This document shows, one piece after another, positions 18,661 through 29,395 of a DNA stretch of 64,000 bases; the stretch's first letter is position 1; every line of letters begins with the position of its first letter. The DNA comes from Elusimicrobiaceae bacterium (lineage in GTDB: Bacteria > Elusimicrobiota > Elusimicrobia > Elusimicrobiales > Elusimicrobiaceae). The translations under genes and the position numbers were made by a program. The notes under the pieces were generated by a model. That model worked only from the letters and a program-made list of their open reading frames with translations, was not told where the DNA came from and ran no database searches. Where the stretch lies: the NCBI GenBank assembly GCA_017961585.1, contig JAGCWX010000020.1, forward strand, positions 62,001 to 126,000, given 5' to 3'.

Positions 18661-18685
18661 TATTAAAATAAAAGCCGTAAAAATC

Positions 18686-18704
18686 CCCGGCCGCTTGGAC
18701 CGGG
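18686..18704 (-). terminator. Terminator of the ankyrin gene
   Basis: CCCGG/CCGGG stem (18686-18690 / 18700-18704) followed on the minus strand by GATTTTTA. Confidence 0.65.
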
Positions 18705-18727
18705 AAAATCAAAAGAAAAGAGACTGG

Positions 18728-20506
18728 CTATTCCTGCGCGCCGTGTTGACGCAGGAAATCGGCAATTTCCGTGTGACCGTTTTGCTTGGCCAAGGACAAA
18801 GCCGTATCTCCGTTTTTCGCACGAGTATTGACGTTGGCACCGGCAGCTAATAATTCTTTTGCCACGGCCAAATCGCCCTTGTAGCTGGCAGCCATCAAAA
18901 CGGTATATCCCTTATTAGTAACGGCGTTCACATTGGCCCCTGCCGCCAACAACGCCTTTACTACATCCAAATATCCATAAACACTGGCCGACATCAAAGC
19001 GGGTTGTCCGTCTATATTCGCGGCGTTCACATTGGCTTTGGCCAAGAGCAACATTTTTACTATGTTCAAATATCCTTTTTCACTGGCGGCAATTAAAGCG
19101 GTAAATCCCTTATCGGTAGCGGCATTGACTTCGGCTCCCGCATCCAACAATGCTTTTACTACATCCGAATGTCCCGCAAAACTGGCAGCCATTAAGGCGG
19201 TCTGTCCGTCTCTATTCACAGCGTTGACATTGGCCTTGGCTTTCAATAACTCCTTTACCACTTCCAAATGCCCTTTTTCACTGGCAGCCATTAAGGCGGT
19301 CGCCCGCTCTTTTGTTAACGCATTTGCCTTGGCACCCGCCGCCAACAACGCCTTTACTATTTCCGAACGCCCCATAAAACTAGCCCCTATCAAAGAGGTC
19401 CATCCATTTTCTGCTGCGGCGTTCACATCAGCTTTGGCCGCCAGCAACGCCTCTACCACTTCCAAGTGACCTTTTTGAGTGGCAGCCATTAAAGCGGTCT
19501 GGCCCGCATTATTTACGATGTTTGCATTGGCCTTGGCTAAGAGCAACTCCTGTACTATTTCTAAATATCCTTTGTCGCTGGCAAACATCAAAGAAGTCCA
19601 TCCATTTTTTTCCGCTGCGTTCACATCGGCCCTGGCCGACAATAACACTTTTACCACATCCAAACGTCCTCGTTGACTGGCTATGATTAATGAAGTCCCC
19701 CCACCTTGGCCTGCGGCATTGACATCTGCCCCAGCCGCTAGCAATACCTTTGCCACGTCGGGGTAGTCTTTATAGCTGGCAGCCATCAAGGCGGTTTGTC
19801 CGTCTTGCGCCGCGGCATTTACATTGGCACCGGCGGATAATAACATATTCACTATTTCCAAATATCCCTCAAAGCTAGCCCCCATTAAAGCGGTTTGTCC
19901 ATCCTTATCCGCGGCATCAATATTCGCTCCCGCCGCCAACAATGCCTTTACTACGTCCGGATGTCCCTCAAGACTGGCCCCCATTAAAGCAGTCCATTTC
20001 TTATTACTTGCCGCATTGACATTGGCACCGGCTTGCAGTAATGCCTTTACCACGTTCAAGTGGCCTTTTTGACTGGCAGCCATTAAAGCGGTGTATTCCT
20101 CTTTATTCACGGCATTGACGTTGACACCAGCCACCAGTAAAGCCTGCACTATTTCTAAATATCCTTTGTCGCTGGCAAGCATCAAAGAGGTCATTCCTTC
20201 ATTAGTAGCGGCATTGACGTTGGCACCGGCGGCTAATAATGCTTTTACTACCTCTAAATGACCTTCCTGACTGGCTACAATTAATGGTGCCCATCCATCT
20301 TTGTCCACAGCGTTTACATCCGCACCTTTTTTGATGAGCTTTTGTACTTGGGCTAAATTGCCTTCATAGGAATTTCCCATCAGGGACGAGGCCCCGTCAT
20401 TTTTCATATGTTTACCATACGTACCGACTCCGATTGTAACAACCCCTGTCGTTATCAGCCCCAAAACAACTAACAATAAAATTAGCAACCCATAATTTCG
20501 TTGCAT
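18728..20506 (-). CDS. Membrane-anchored protein of 17 ankyrin repeats
   Basis: 592 residues. An N-terminal hydrophobic helix (GLLILLLVVLGLITTGVVTIG, residues 5-26) acts as anchor or uncleaved signal; 17 uninterrupted 33-residue ankyrin repeats follow to the end, of the type (D)GxTALMAAS..GHLEVVKALLAAGANVNA. The repeats are very alike, so the array has probably grown by recent duplication. The solenoid most likely lies in the periplasm, because few positive residues precede the helix and GKHMK follows it, but orientation is uncertain. The ATG at 20506 has GGAGG five bases upstream; an in-frame start at 20542 overlaps the upstream gene. It begins 25 bp after the PAS/GAF gene and is probably cotranscribed. 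Confidence 0.85.
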   Translation of the reverse strand: MQRNYGLLILLLVVLGLITTGVVTIGVGTYGKHMKNDGASSLMGNSYEGNLAQVQKLIKKGADVNAVDKDGWAPLIVASQEGHLEVVKALLAAGANVNAATNEGMTSLMLASDKGYLEIVQALLVAGVNVNAVNKEEYTALMAASQKGHLNVVKALLQAGANVNAASNKKWTALMGASLEGHPDVVKALLAAGANIDAADKDGQTALMGASFEGYLEIVNMLLSAGANVNAAAQDGQTALMAASYKDYPDVAKVLLAAGADVNAAGQGGGTSLIIASQRGRLDVVKVLLSARADVNAAEKNGWTSLMFASDKGYLEIVQELLLAKANANIVNNAGQTALMAATQKGHLEVVEALLAAKADVNAAAENGWTSLIGASFMGRSEIVKALLAAGAKANALTKERATALMAASEKGHLEVVKELLKAKANVNAVNRDGQTALMAASFAGHSDVVKALLDAGAEVNAATDKGFTALIAASEKGYLNIVKMLLLAKANVNAANIDGQPALMSASVYGYLDVVKALLAAGANVNAVTNKGYTVLMAASYKGDLAVAKELLAAGANVNTRAKNGDTALSLAKQNGHTEIADFLRQHGAQE

Positions 20507-20531
20507 AAGCACCTCCATTTTCCCAATGTTT

Positions 20532-23500
20532 TTACGCGGCAATCAGCCCGTAGCTTACCACCGCGCCGGAATCGTCCTTGCACAGTACCACCTCAAAGGG
20601 CAGCTCTTTGTAAACACCTTTTTGATCAAGCACTTCCAAGGTGATGGTAAACGTGTTCCCGCTGGCTTGACGTGCGGCTTCTTTGAAAGCTTGCTTGGAT
20701 AAATCCGGGTTGCGGATAATTTCTTCAAAGAAATTGCGCCCCAGCATATTGCCGATATGCCGCCCGGTCAAGTCCAACAGTTGCGGGCTGACAAAGCTCA
20801 TTTGATAATCCAAATCCAGCAGGGCGGTGGGTTTGTCCACATATTCTAAAGTATGCGCGAACGAGCGTGAGGCCTCGCTAAGCAGTTTGCCCGCTTGACG
20901 CAACTCAATACGCAAACTTAACAACCGCGCCAACAGCCCCATCAGCTCTTCGGCACCGGGTTCAAATCCGCGTCGCGCCGTTTTGGAAGCAAAACACAAC
21001 GCGCCGGTCACTTTGCCCTGCGTGTATAACGGAGCCGCCACCAGCGAACCGAGCCGGCGTTTTTTGTGCAAGCAATTTTTGCACGAGACGGACGATAAAT
21101 CCGGCCAAAGGAGCACGCGCCCGTCCTTGGTATCCAGCAGACACTCTTCCAACGCAAAGGACATATCGCGCTCCAGCTCCAGGTCGTTATCCGTAACGTA
21201 CATCACGCGGGATTGACCCTTTTGGTCAAAGCGCAGCACTAACCCTACGTCGGCACGGAAAGATTTTAAACCAAAGGCCAGGATTTGTTCCACTTGCTGG
21301 GTCATGGATAGGCCCGGCTCGGAAGTGATGCGGTACAAATCGCGCACTTGCTGTTCGTAATCGTGATCTTGCGACACATCTTTGAGCCACAGCACGGTTT
21401 CTTCGCGCCCGGTAATGGGGGTAACGCTCACTTCAAAATAGCGCGTGCCTTGCGGCATTTTCCACGTGAGCGAAAATTGCGTGGCCATATTCATGGAAAG
21501 CGACTCTTTGATAGAGAGCAAGGTTTGCTGGGCGGCTTCCTCCCCCCAGTATGCCTTGGGCGTTTTGCCGATGAAGGTATCCACCGCCTCTTTGGCCGGC
21601 AAATAGTGCAAGTTGGAATAAACTTCCAACGCTTTGCCGTTGCTATCGGTCTTTAAATACAACCCGGGCAGGGCGGCGCGCACGCTTTTGAGCTCCTGCG
21701 CTTCTTTAGAAGTGCTGGACCATTGGTCCCGCTCGCCGGATAAATCGCGCAACACAACCAGGGCCGCTTCTTGGCCGGGCAAGTCAAGCGCGGTCAGCGT
21801 TACTTGCGCCTCAAAGCGGGAACCGTCTTTGCGTTTCATCGGATGTGTGAACACGGCCTTGCCGCTGGCAGCCAAATCTTTTTGGGCCTTATGCAATACC
21901 GGGGCAAAAGGCGTTTTGGGCGAATTGGCAAACAAGTCTTTAAACTGTTTGTGGGAAAGCTCGTCCTGCGTGAAACCCAGCAATTGCGCCAAGTGTTGGC
22001 TGACGGTATCTATTTCGCCCCAAGTACCTTGGTGCAATAAGATAGAGAACACAATCCCGTTGGTGGATTCCAACAAGGCATTGAGCTGGGCAGAGCGTTC
22101 TTCCAATACTTTAATAAGTTGTAAATGGCCGGTGCGGTTTTGCAGTACAAACAGGTAGCGGCCCGAGTCCGCCTTTACGCCCGTCAAGCGAACCGCTATC
22201 TTTTCCAGCCCGCTAGCGGGGTTGATGAAATAATCGCGGTTAGAGAGGGTGCCTTCGTTTGCCAGGGTGTGCAAGTCTTTTTGGAAGACGGATTTGGATT
22301 CCTCGTCCATAATATGCCAAATTTCCTGGCCTAAGAGTTCATCTTCTTCCAGTTGGCACAACTCGCAGAATAATTTATTGCAAGAGCGCATTTTGAAGTC
22401 GGACGAGCAAAGCACGTACGGCTCGCTATTGGGCAGCACCAGCATTTCGCGCGCGCTGTTGGGGGCCGGGCGCAATGCCGTAGGCGGCAAGGGCCGACGC
22501 AAAAGCTGTTTGAATGAATTGCCCTCAGAAAAATTAGGCGCGTTGAACGTGACCACGTAGTCGGCCACGACTTCGCCGGCCAGCCCGATACGCTTTTGGA
22601 TCGGATTAAAATGCATGTGCAAATTCAAGCTGGGGCGCGTGGAATCAAAACGACCGGGGAATTTGTCGGCCGCGCGTTTGAAATCAAACACGTAGTCCAT
22701 CTGCGCTTCTTCCCCCTCGCGCAGTTTGCGGCGTACGTCCAATTTCAAACCCGGGCGCACGTACACGTTTTGGTAGAAAGTTTTGTCAATTTCTTTCATC
22801 CCCAACAAGTTGCGACACGCGTCATTCATAGAGCGGATGTACCCGTTGCTGCGCAGGATGAAGGCCGGCACCGCGGCTTTTTCAAACGCGTTGCGGTAAT
22901 TTTCCCGCTGGCGGGTCAAGTCGCGCCGCAGGCGGTTAAATTGGGTAACATCGCGCACAAAGCACAGCACAATGCGCCGCCCTAAATAGCGCGAAGCAAT
23001 GGCCGAGAATTCCGTTTCTGCCAGGGTACCATCGGTACGTTTAAAGCAAATATCCACCGGCTCTTGCGCATCTTCCGCGCCGGATAAAACAGCATCGTAC
23101 TTTTCGTTTAGTAAGTCTTGATAGTCGGGCGCTACGAAGGAAACCAGCGGTTTGCCCACGATATCTTGCGCGTTTTCAAAACCCAATAAGTGCGCAAAAG
23201 CGTGGTTGCTGTACATGACCTTCTTTTCTTCGGCCCAGAAGACCCCTTCACGGGCATTTTCCACAAACAGCGTGTTTTTGTCGCTCGCTTCGCGGATTTG
23301 TTTTTCCATGTGAGTCTTGGCGGTAATATCTTCCGAAACCACAATCAGCGAGCTGGGGGTTCCGTCTTCATTAAACACAGGGGTTTTAACCGTGTGCATA
23401 ATTTTGACCCCGTCCTTAGGGGTGGAAATAAGTTCTTGCGCAATGTCTTGCTCTTTTTTGTTTTCAAATACGCGCAAGTCCCCCTCGCGCACAAATTCCA

Positions 23501-25574
23501 ATTGTTCTTTGTTCAGGTCGGAGCGGTACGCCTCTTTTCCAATTACTTTATCGGCAGATACACCAAAGAGTTCTTCACTCTTTTTGTTCCACAGAATGTA
23601 TTTACCGTCGTACCCTTTGACCGACAAGGACACCGGCAAGTTGTTAATAATGGTTTGCAAGAAGTTCCTGGCATTGATGATTTGCGCTTCTTGCGCTTTT
23701 TGCTGTGTGATATCTTCGGCCACGGTTAAAATGATAAAGGGTTTGCCTTCTTTATCAAACACCGGGGCTTTGATGAGGTGCAATTTTAATTTCTTCCCCT
23801 CCGTGGTGGTATATTCTTCTTCGAGGATTTCCACAATCTTTTTGTTGTCAAAAATAGACTGTTCGCGCTTTTCGTAAAACTCGTTCCGGTCGGATTCCTG
23901 GTCTTTTTCATCCTCTCCGGGGAACAATTCGTGCGCACGGCGGTTCATCAAACGCAACGTGTTATTGGTCCCGCGGGCGTAGATAGCCACGGGCACGTTG
24001 TCCAGCACGGTTTGTAGGAAGTTCTTTGTTTCCAGCAAGTCTTTTTCCTGTTTTTTGCGCTGGGAAACATCTTCCACCAGCGTCAGCACGAAGGCATCTT
24101 TTTCTTCCTCTCCGTACACGGGCACTTTAATTAAGCGTAAAATTTTGGTTTCGCCCTTGGAGGTAACGTAAAGTTCTTCGGGGATATCCATCGTCTTGCC
24201 GGAATCAATAATATCCTGTTCGCGCTGGGCGTATTGTTTCACCTGTTCGGGGGTTTCGTTGATAAGCGGCGTGATGACGTTATCGTCCTGCAGCGGCATG
24301 TGCACTTCGGAGTCAAAAATTTCGGCACATTGTTTGTTGGCCATTAATATGGTTCCATTGGGGAAACGTGCATACAACCCCAGCGGAATATTCTGCACCA
24401 CCGCGGTCAGTAAATTGTTGGCCCGTTTTACTTCTTGGCTGCGGTGAATATTCTCGGTGATATCTTCCACAATGGAAAGCACCAACGGTTTGGGGCCGGC
24501 ATCCATCAGCGGTACTTTGCGCAAGTGCAAAATACGCTTGTTACCTTGCGAATCCACATATTCTTCTTCGGGAAAATCTTTCACTTCCCCTTCGCGCAGA
24601 ATTTCCTGTTCGCGCAGACGGTTGGCTTTTACCTGTTCCAAAGTTTGATAAGTATGTGCCCGGTTGACACTTTTTTCATCTTTTTCGTTAAGCGTTTTTA
24701 AACTTTGGCGGTTGAAAAACGTCATATTCCCGTCAATATCGCGCGTATACAACCCCAGGGGCACGTTATCAAGCACAGCGCGCAACAACGTACGGTTTTG
24801 CAATAAACCTTGCTGTTCGTGATGGCGTGCGGTGATGTCTTCAAATTGCGTTAAAATGCGCAGCTCTTGCCCGGGTTTGGCCGGCAAAAATTCCTTGCGC
24901 ACACACAAAGCAACGGTTTGGCCTTGCTCATCTTTATAAACTAAATCGGTCGGTTTGGGAGCGGTTTTCTTCTCTATGAGTTCCTGGTCCAGCTGTTGCA
25001 GTGAAGCCGTAATCTCTTTGGGAAAGAAGGGATAGATATCCTGCCCGGCGATATCCACCGCCTGGTAACCGAACAAATCTTCGGCGCGCTTGTTCCAAAA
25101 CAAACAATGCCCGGCTAAATCTTGCACCACAATGGCCGAGGGCGAAACATCCAACGCATCGTGCAAGAAGGCATTGTCCGACGTTAATTGGGTAAAATAG
25201 GGGATGGATTCAAGCGTCAGCAAAATAAACGGGGTTTCTGCCAAAAAACTGGCCGCTGCCCCTACGAATACGGACTCGGCCTGTTGGTTAATTAGCTCAA
25301 TAATTATTTTCTTGCGGTTTTCCGCCTGCGCCATGGAGCGGATTTTGTCCATCGTGAGCCCAAAGCGGTCCACGTACGAGGATTGCAAATCCTGCTCGGT
25401 GGTGTGGAGCAATTGGGCCGCGCTGGCGTTGGCAAAGCTCACACGCCCCGTGGCATCCACCAGCAAAACCGCCAGCGGATACTGCTTTAAAAATTCCATC
25501 ATCTCGGCCGATAGCTTTCGCACCGCCGAAACAGGTGATGGTTTGGAAAAAAGTGAAAATAATTTGTTTGCCAT
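20532..25574 (-). CDS. Giant multi-PAS/GAF sensor protein without output domain
   Basis: 1680 residues, no signal peptide and no transmembrane segment. I count about twelve PAS domains (near residues 30, 135, 260, 385, 510, 635, 760, 880, 1030, 1160, 1280 and 1570), most ending in the PAC motif (VEDIT, SEDIT, VRDVT), and one GAF domain (about 1410-1550) with four Cys (SVSCKNCLHKK and LEECLLD nearby). The last PAS runs to the stop codon: there is no histidine kinase, GGDEF, EAL, HAMP or methyl-accepting domain. PAS 3-6 are very similar to each other (LLxAVLDNVPLGLYxR), suggesting internal duplication. GAGGGG precedes the ATG. A scaffold or a sensor acting through a separate kinase is possible; function unknown. 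Confidence 0.85.
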   Translation of the reverse strand: MANKLFSLFSKPSPVSAVRKLSAEMMEFLKQYPLAVLLVDATGRVSFANASAAQLLHTTEQDLQSSYVDRFGLTMDKIRSMAQAENRKKIIIELINQQAESVFVGAAASFLAETPFILLTLESIPYFTQLTSDNAFLHDALDVSPSAIVVQDLAGHCLFWNKRAEDLFGYQAVDIAGQDIYPFFPKEITASLQQLDQELIEKKTAPKPTDLVYKDEQGQTVALCVRKEFLPAKPGQELRILTQFEDITARHHEQQGLLQNRTLLRAVLDNVPLGLYTRDIDGNMTFFNRQSLKTLNEKDEKSVNRAHTYQTLEQVKANRLREQEILREGEVKDFPEEEYVDSQGNKRILHLRKVPLMDAGPKPLVLSIVEDITENIHRSQEVKRANNLLTAVVQNIPLGLYARFPNGTILMANKQCAEIFDSEVHMPLQDDNVITPLINETPEQVKQYAQREQDIIDSGKTMDIPEELYVTSKGETKILRLIKVPVYGEEEKDAFVLTLVEDVSQRKKQEKDLLETKNFLQTVLDNVPVAIYARGTNNTLRLMNRRAHELFPGEDEKDQESDRNEFYEKREQSIFDNKKIVEILEEEYTTTEGKKLKLHLIKAPVFDKEGKPFIILTVAEDITQQKAQEAQIINARNFLQTIINNLPVSLSVKGYDGKYILWNKKSEELFGVSADKVIGKEAYRSDLNKEQLEFVREGDLRVFENKKEQDIAQELISTPKDGVKIMHTVKTPVFNEDGTPSSLIVVSEDITAKTHMEKQIREASDKNTLFVENAREGVFWAEEKKVMYSNHAFAHLLGFENAQDIVGKPLVSFVAPDYQDLLNEKYDAVLSGAEDAQEPVDICFKRTDGTLAETEFSAIASRYLGRRIVLCFVRDVTQFNRLRRDLTRQRENYRNAFEKAAVPAFILRSNGYIRSMNDACRNLLGMKEIDKTFYQNVYVRPGLKLDVRRKLREGEEAQMDYVFDFKRAADKFPGRFDSTRPSLNLHMHFNPIQKRIGLAGEVVADYVVTFNAPNFSEGNSFKQLLRRPLPPTALRPAPNSAREMLVLPNSEPYVLCSSDFKMRSCNKLFCELCQLEEDELLGQEIWHIMDEESKSVFQKDLHTLANEGTLSNRDYFINPASGLEKIAVRLTGVKADSGRYLFVLQNRTGHLQLIKVLEERSAQLNALLESTNGIVFSILLHQGTWGEIDTVSQHLAQLLGFTQDELSHKQFKDLFANSPKTPFAPVLHKAQKDLAASGKAVFTHPMKRKDGSRFEAQVTLTALDLPGQEAALVVLRDLSGERDQWSSTSKEAQELKSVRAALPGLYLKTDSNGKALEVYSNLHYLPAKEAVDTFIGKTPKAYWGEEAAQQTLLSIKESLSMNMATQFSLTWKMPQGTRYFEVSVTPITGREETVLWLKDVSQDHDYEQQVRDLYRITSEPGLSMTQQVEQILAFGLKSFRADVGLVLRFDQKGQSRVMYVTDNDLELERDMSFALEECLLDTKDGRVLLWPDLSSVSCKNCLHKKRRLGSLVAAPLYTQGKVTGALCFASKTARRGFEPGAEELMGLLARLLSLRIELRQAGKLLSEASRSFAHTLEYVDKPTALLDLDYQMSFVSPQLLDLTGRHIGNMLGRNFFEEIIRNPDLSKQAFKEAARQASGNTFTITLEVLDQKGVYKELPFEVVLCKDDSGAVVSYGLIAA

Positions 25575-28903: not shown

Positions 28904-29395
28904 TTATTCTGCGGTACGCAATAAGCCCAACGATTCGCAAATCGTTCTGCTCTTCGTATCCGAGGCCGAAACGGGCTCGCACTGCAATTCCAGCGAGGCA
29001 TCCGCCGACGTGCTGGTATACGGGTTCCAAATTCGGTAGCTGTATCCGCTACCACTGTTGATACGGGTAGCCATTACCCCAGGGCAACTCGTACCGGGTA
29101 CGCTATTAGGGGCAGTCCCTAACGCAAAGGTAAAATGTTTGCCGTCAATACTGGCAGTGCGGGTATTAGAAGCCGGCAAGCTAGCCACCAACTGGCTAAA
29201 AAAGGTGGGGCAGCTTTCTTTCTCTACGTAATAAGTGTAGATAGCGTCGTTGATAGATTTAATAGAAGACATGGCCTCCGTAGCGCGGGCACGTTCTACC
29301 GAGCGCATATATTGCGGCATAGCCACTGCCGCCAACACGCCAATGATCAAAACTACTGTTAATAATTCTGTTAATGTAAAACCTAATTTATTCAT
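28904..29395 (-). CDS. Type IV pilin-like protein (pseudopilin) 4
   Basis: 163 residues starting MNKLGFTLTELLTVVLIIGV, with a four-residue leader before the prepilin peptidase site and Glu5 of the mature chain. The helix ends AMPQYMRSVERARATEAM. The C-terminal domain has four Cys (SCPTFF, TSCPG, LQCEP, TICES). GGAGG precedes the ATG. It is a solitary gene between a terminator and dapL; -10 candidates TACAAT (29418-29413) and TGC-TATAAT (29428-29423) overlap the dapL stop codon. Confidence 0.88.
   Translation of the reverse strand: MNKLGFTLTELLTVVLIIGVLAAVAMPQYMRSVERARATEAMSSIKSINDAIYTYYVEKESCPTFFSQLVASLPASNTRTASIDGKHFTFALGTAPNSVPGTSCPGVMATRINSGSGYSYRIWNPYTSTSADASLELQCEPVSASDTKSRTICESLGLLRTAE

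What the first reader, a model, noticed from the sequence alone, without database searches (positions are those of the whole stretch)
18728..25574. Twelve-PAS/one-GAF giant with no output domain, paired with a 17-repeat ankyrin protein
The 1680-residue protein is soluble and ends inside a PAS domain; PAS 3-6 look recently duplicated. The next gene, 25 bp away, encodes a membrane-anchored ankyrin solenoid of near-identical repeats. Both proteins appear to grow by internal duplication. A sensing scaffold coupled to a binding solenoid would be a new arrangement, though the membrane may separate the two.
Basis: partly seen in the sequence, partly recalled or inferred. Interest (0 to 1): 0.6.

Follow-up and report, generated by a model that had tools for sequence, protein, structure and literature searches.

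The report
Sensor array without output; ankyrin incidental
A giant cytoplasmic sensor protein made of twelve PAS domains and one GAF domain, with no built-in output, is kept across gut Elusimicrobiaceae bacteria; it most likely works on a separate histidine kinase that lost its own sensor in the same lineage, whereas the neighbouring ankyrin gene is a chance neighbour.

Summary
The 1,680-aa protein (25574..20532, minus strand) is real, intact and soluble: twelve PAS-like domains plus one GAF. It is not a broken kinase. A homologue occurs in 85 of 90 Elusimicrobiaceae genomes and in none outside the family among 235 of the class. All 48 complete copies (1,196-1,839 aa) stop right after the last PAS. 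The 592-aa ankyrin protein (17 repeats, N-terminal anchor, probably exported) follows the giant in only 2 of 40 loci, in non-sister genomes; elsewhere lon or unrelated genes follow. The proposed sensor-ankyrin unit is therefore not supported. The lead is outside the window: a 246-aa histidine-kinase core that begins at its phospho-acceptor helix. Across the class its orthologue is a ~520-540-aa GAF-PAS-kinase; in the giant-bearing genera g1, g2 and g5 that sensor half is gone. Branch-rate covariation of giant and kinase is the strongest of 36 protein pairs tested (partial r 0.56). Best explanation (0.42): the giant is a multi-input sensor acting in trans on this kinase. Against it: unlinked genes, one evolutionary event during genome reduction, one genus (g6) with a divergent giant but no kinase, and no specific match between the giant's GAF-PAS and the kinase's lost GAF-PAS.

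The parts
20532..25574 (-). Output-less 12-PAS/1-GAF giant, 1,680 aa (P0001)
   Evidence: ORF; Pfam/NCBIfam; homologue in 85 of 90 family genomes; all 48 complete copies end after the last PAS
25203..25511 (-). PAS1 (residues 22-124)
   Evidence: Pfam PAS E 5.6e-4
24810..25187 (-). PAS2 (130-255)
   Evidence: Pfam PAS_4 E 5e-10
24435..24791 (-). PAS3 (262-380)
   Evidence: Pfam PAS_9 E 9e-5; 36-39% identical to PAS4 and PAS5
24051..24413 (-). PAS4 (388-508)
   Evidence: Pfam PAS_9 E 4e-3
23673..24020 (-). PAS5 (519-634); missing or doubled in some orthologues
   Evidence: Pfam PAS_9 E 9e-6; occupancy table and insert of an extra PAS
23304..23651 (-). PAS6 (642-757), most conserved domain, invariant W662 and H727, motif KIMHTVKTP
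   Evidence: Pfam PAS_4 E 3e-13; 72% mean identity to orthologues against 37-55% for the other domains
22929..23273 (-). PAS7 (768-882)
   Evidence: Pfam PAS E 3e-11
22530..22907 (-). PAS8 (890-1015)
   Evidence: Pfam PAS_8 E 1e-3
22110..22442 (-). PAS9 (1045-1155)
   Evidence: Pfam PAS_9 E 2.5e-5
21729..22088 (-). PAS10 (1163-1282)
   Evidence: Pfam PAS_9 E 1e-7
21369..21716 (-). PAS11 (1287-1402), inferred only
   Evidence: no Pfam PAS hit; weak profile similarity to PAS domains
20889..21347 (-). GAF domain (1410-1562)
   Evidence: Pfam GAF E 5e-7
20994..21143 (-). Conserved Cys/His set in the GAF: C1478, C1498-x2-C1501-x-H1503, C1527
   Evidence: 94-98% conserved in 48 orthologues; mostly lost in G089
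20535..20879 (-). PAS12 (1566-1680); the protein ends here
   Evidence: Pfam PAS E 1.6e-4; same end in all complete orthologues
18728..20506 (-). Ankyrin protein, 592 aa, 17 repeats; incidental neighbour
   Evidence: Pfam Ank; repeats; adjacency in 2 of 40 loci
20432..20488 (-). N-terminal hydrophobic anchor of the ankyrin protein
   Evidence: hydropathy maximum 2.84
18684..18706 (-). Terminator-like hairpin after the ankyrin gene; no terminator-like site was found in the 25-bp gap, so cotranscription in this strain is possible
   Evidence: number of such sites in the region is at chance level

Best explanation
The giant is a stand-alone cytoplasmic multi-input sensor that works in trans, most likely by binding and regulating a sensor-less histidine-kinase core encoded elsewhere in the genome (246 aa, G000:C11:9743-10480, minus). 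Shown: the giant never has an output domain; the kinase orthologue has GAF-PAS in front of HisKA-HATPase across the class but only the kinase core in the giant-bearing genera g1, g2 and g5; the two covary in branch rate. Inferred: that the PAS array, possibly through its hyperconserved PAS6 or its C-terminal GAF-PAS, supplies the lost input; that the two bind; that a shared response regulator carries the signal. The ankyrin protein is not part of it.
For: Homologue in 85 of 90 family genomes, none outside the family at E<=1e-40. Identical C-terminal end in 48 complete copies. The kinase starts within about 30 residues of its H-box in giant-bearing genomes; orthologues in family members without a giant (G069, G070) and in other families of the class are mostly 510-548 aa GAF-PAS-HisKA-HATPase. 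Orthology is supported by the same ~290-aa putative outer-membrane gene upstream in gut genomes and several outgroups. Branch-rate covariation in 17 genomes, 31 branches, 9 proteins: giant-kinase partial r 0.56, the highest of 36 pairs; permutation p 0.00045 (about 0.016 after correction for 36 pairs), leave-one-branch-out 0.45-0.62, bootstrap 0.24-0.80. A second kinase as control gives 0.21.
Against: Genes unlinked. Genus g6 (G089) keeps a divergent 1,196-aa giant, while its kinase is cleanly missing between two conserved neighbours. The loss of the kinase sensor is one clade-level event and coincides with genome reduction (2.2-2.3 to about 1.4 Mb). A profile of the giant's GAF-PAS12 did not retrieve the kinase's GAF-PAS in G069 or G070, so descent by gene fission is not shown. 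Only eight proteins besides the giant were available for the covariation test. No interaction was tested; the structure models were too poor to use.
Confidence: 0.42

Rival explanations
1. The giant is a trans-acting PAS hub, but its main partner is not the sensor-less kinase core: for example the membrane-anchored kinase with a coiled coil and no sensor (312 aa, G000:C27), the response-regulator-GGDEF protein, or several partners.
For: The 312-aa kinase is present in most giant-bearing genomes including g6 G089 and sits just upstream of the giant in one g5 genome, G076. The giant persists in g6 without the kinase core.
Against: The 312-aa kinase has the same sensor-less form in class members without a giant; its rate covariation with the giant is only 0.21; adjacency was seen in one genome.
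Confidence: 0.33
2. The kinase core and the giant are unrelated. After losing GAF-PAS the kinase is controlled by the ~173-aa helical protein translated with it.
For: The 173-aa gene overlaps the kinase stop by 4 bp in the window's genome and lies elsewhere in G069, about 4 kb away.
Against: Within the genus its partial rate covariation with the kinase is -0.04 and with the giant 0.13. It has no recognisable sensor domain. It survives in G089 without the kinase.
Confidence: 0.15
3. One reading: the PAS giant and the ankyrin protein form a sensing-binding unit.
For: 25-bp gap, same strand, no terminator-like site in the gap; an ankyrin gene 12 bp behind the giant also in G031.
Against: Adjacent in 2 of 40 loci; G031's sister genomes lack it; the ankyrin protein looks exported; ankyrin-repeat matches are found in 88 of 90 family genomes, including genomes without the giant.
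Confidence: 0.04
4. The giant is a kinase truncated by frameshift or assembly error.
For: It ends directly after a PAS domain, where kinases usually continue.
Against: The same end is found in 48 complete copies from four genera; downstream genes differ and are not kinase remnants.
Confidence: 0.01

Closest known systems
DivL-CckA of Caulobacter (PMC4211667, PMC4853435)
   Same: A protein with several PAS domains and no kinase activity of its own acts in trans on a separate histidine kinase.
   Different: DivL keeps a histidine-kinase-like region; the Elusimicrobiaceae giant has none and has about 10-13 PAS. No relationship was tested.
Split histidine kinases such as Hik36-Hik43 of Synechocystis (PMC7656254; theory in PMC3591291)
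   Same: One kinase function distributed over two proteins.
   Different: From general knowledge, described splits separate the phospho-acceptor part from the ATP-binding part; here the proposed split is between sensor and complete kinase core.
Chemoreceptor-CheA arrays (general knowledge)
   Same: Sensors separate from the kinase they control.
   Different: No receptor signalling domain was found in the giant and the kinase has only HisKA and HATPase_c, no other CheA-type domains, by Pfam.
Multi-PAS histidine kinases (for example ArcB- or FixL-like models of NCBIfam)
   Same: The PAS parts match these models.
   Different: All such matches are far below the curated cut-offs and cover only PAS regions; no kinase part.

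Membership tests
PAS-domain sensor histidine kinase | PAS sensor domains | tested here: met
PAS-domain sensor histidine kinase | HisKA plus HATPase_c in the same protein | tested here: not met
   no hit; no copy extends into a kinase beyond the last PAS
Split sensor kinase (sensor and kinase core in separate proteins) | A kinase core without sensor in the same genome | tested here: met
   P0003, HisKA and HATPase_c from residue 13
Split sensor kinase (sensor and kinase core in separate proteins) | Related genomes with a sensor fused to this kinase | tested here: met
   GAF-PAS-kinase orthologues across the class
Split sensor kinase (sensor and kinase core in separate proteins) | The separate sensor descends from the fused sensor | tested here: inconclusive
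   co-linear GAF-PAS, hhalign 94.5%, but not retrieved specifically in whole genomes
Split sensor kinase (sensor and kinase core in separate proteins) | Sensor and kinase always occur together | tested here: not met
   G089 has a giant but no kinase
Split sensor kinase (sensor and kinase core in separate proteins) | Physical interaction and control | not testable with these tools
   needs two-hybrid and kinase assay
Ankyrin-repeat protein | Tandem 33-aa ankyrin repeats | tested here: met
   Pfam Ank E 5e-124; 17 repeats
Conserved PAS giant-ankyrin operon | Adjacency kept in relatives | tested here: not met
   2 of 40 loci

The most novel reading that the evidence does not exclude
In gut Elusimicrobiaceae an ancestral GAF-PAS histidine kinase shed its whole sensory half, and sensing passed to a separate 10-13-PAS/GAF protein that integrates many cytoplasmic signals and controls the bare kinase core in trans: a two-component system with a detachable sensor hub.
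Probability: 0.35. Interest if true: 0.75.

Novelty: new variant of a known kind. Interest (0 to 1): 0.5.

Why it matters
PAS proteins without output are usually passed over as fragments. Here a very long one is kept family-wide in bacteria with about 1.4-Mb genomes and only about five histidine kinases, and one of those kinases has lost its sensor in the same lineage. If the two work together, this is a clear natural case of a sensor array separated from its kinase, and it shows how a streamlined gut bacterium can feed many inputs into one pathway. It also gives an experimental handle on a poorly studied phylum.

Tried and rejected
1) Ankyrin partnership: rejected after comparison of 40 loci and a tree of the sub-clade. 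2) Kinase lost by frameshift or assembly error: rejected. 3) Origin of the giant's GAF-PAS12 from the kinase's GAF-PAS by gene fission: hhalign gives 94.5% for the tandem, but several other PAS domains of the giant match the kinase PAS as well or better and a whole-genome profile search did not single out the kinase; left open, not claimed. 4) The 312-aa membrane-anchored kinase as the changed partner: its sensor-less form is class-wide, so it did not change with the giant. 5) Covariation of giant and 173-aa protein seen with pairwise distances across genera (0.65) fell to 0.13 with branch lengths within the genus and was dropped. 6) AlphaFold models of both halves from two-sequence alignments: mean pLDDT 40 and 52, not used for fold search. 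7) Literature: no paper found on this protein in Elusimicrobiota.

Full report
The object. The window lies in contig 5 of a 1.49-Mb genome assembled as 36 contigs, estimated 98% complete. A relative with 43% identity is a yak-rectum MAG titled Elusimicrobiaceae. The reading frame at 25574..20532 encodes 1,680 aa. Cut into segments, it gives PAS matches in 11 of 12 expected places and one GAF. PAS11 is inferred. No output domain is found. All six PAS_9 matches in the whole genome lie in this one protein. The PAS domains fall into two groups: PAS2-6 match each other at 99-100% profile probability; PAS1, 7, 9, 10 and 12 mostly match one another.

Conservation. A homologue is found in 85 of 90 family genomes: genera g1, g2, g5 and g6; none in g3 and g4, each represented by one larger genome. 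Among 235 genomes of the class all matches at E<=1e-40 are in this family. Forty-eight complete copies range from 1,196 to 1,839 aa and all stop just behind the last PAS. Domain number varies: PAS5 is missing in one clade, an extra PAS is inserted beside PAS5 in another, and the N-terminus differs or is shorter in g2, g5 and g6. PAS6 stands out with 72% mean identity to orthologues against 37-55% elsewhere, and with invariant W662 and H727. The GAF carries C1478, C1498-x2-C1501-x-H1503 and C1527, 94-98% conserved, which could be a metal or redox site; this is a guess.

The ankyrin gene. It has 17 repeats behind a hydrophobic N-terminus. In the closest relatives the giant is followed by lon (G012, G056, G015, G003; a short ORF intervenes in G003) or by another gene and then lon (G033). 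Only the window genome and G031 have an ankyrin gene on the same strand there, and in the tree G031 groups with G015 and G003, which lack it. Other clades have other neighbours. Ankyrin-repeat matches are found in 88 of 90 family genomes, so the place is a site where such genes occasionally land, or from which they are lost. The G031 protein begins with a lipoprotein-type signal, so the ankyrin protein is probably exported.

The kinase. The genome has eight HATPase_c matches, of which about five or six are histidine kinases; my subtraction of gyrB-, mutL- or htpG-like matches is by length and not verified. One, P0003, is 246 aa and begins at the phospho-acceptor helix (MTNNEALSAKALTLISHKLRTPL). 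Its orthologues are 244-261 aa in g1, g2 and g5. In G069, G070 and most other genera of the class they are 510-548 aa, with GAF and a PAS-like region before HisKA; a few shorter hits start close to contig ends, and a few are longer. The break lies exactly between the PAS-like region and HisKA. The ~290-aa gene upstream is shared by gut and several outgroup genomes. So the kinase lost its sensor inside the family that has the output-less giant. Genomes with the giant but without the kinase are G030 and G068, which are fragmented or incomplete, and G089, where the neighbours are intact and the kinase is gone. Genomes with the short kinase but no giant (G028, G078, G081) are 64-69% complete.

Independent test. 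With a tree from nine proteins in 17 genomes of g1, branch lengths were estimated per protein and the background removed. The giant-kinase partial correlation is 0.56, the highest of 36 pairs (next 0.47); permutation p 0.00045 before correction for 36 pairs; it does not depend on one branch. Among segments of the giant, residues 1161-1405 correlate most (0.53). The number of background proteins is small, so I treat this as moderate support.

Mechanism and limits. I think it most likely that the giant senses several cytoplasmic signals and controls this kinase in trans. What is shown is domain loss on one side, absence of output on the other, and covariation. Binding, signal and response regulator are not known. 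The chief objections are genus g6, the single origin of the change, and genome reduction in the same lineage. The origin of the giant from the kinase's own sensor is not shown.

Comparison. It would work like DivL-CckA (PMC4211667) or receptor-CheA systems in that the sensor is separate from the kinase; it is not a member of either by the features tested. Searches of open papers found no description of it.

Noticed in passing
L044 and others (c4), for example L005:5648-6211 (-): A secreted Cys-rich protein of about 190 aa (EDTCPGQDIF...CTKQ) is next to the giant in most g1 clades outside the window's sub-clade, divergent in some and co-directional in others, so the linkage survives an orientation change.
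   Followed up: partly
window 28904-29395 and many loci (cluster c0): Type IV pilin-like genes (GFTL..ELL N-terminus) are scattered singly through the genomes around unrelated genes; the largest gene cluster in the neighbourhood comparison.
   Followed up: no
L099:5222-5743 (-): A ~173-aa helical protein of unknown family overlaps the kinase stop by 4 bp in the window's genome and is kept in G089 after loss of the kinase.
   Followed up: partly
G076 locus L074: In one g5 genome the RsmI-Sua5-kinase (294 aa) operon lies directly upstream of the giant (114-bp gap); in G083, G086 and G088 the two are about 16-18 kb apart on the same strand.
   Followed up: partly
G080 and other genomes: Ankyrin-repeat matches vary widely between genomes (0 to 17 strong matches), several with an in-frame stop, suggesting rapid turnover.
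   Followed up: no
G067: This single-contig genome of 1,643,562 bp is probably Elusimicrobium minutum (length from memory, not verified); it carries a 1,543-aa giant and the short kinase, so a cultured organism may be available.
   Followed up: partly
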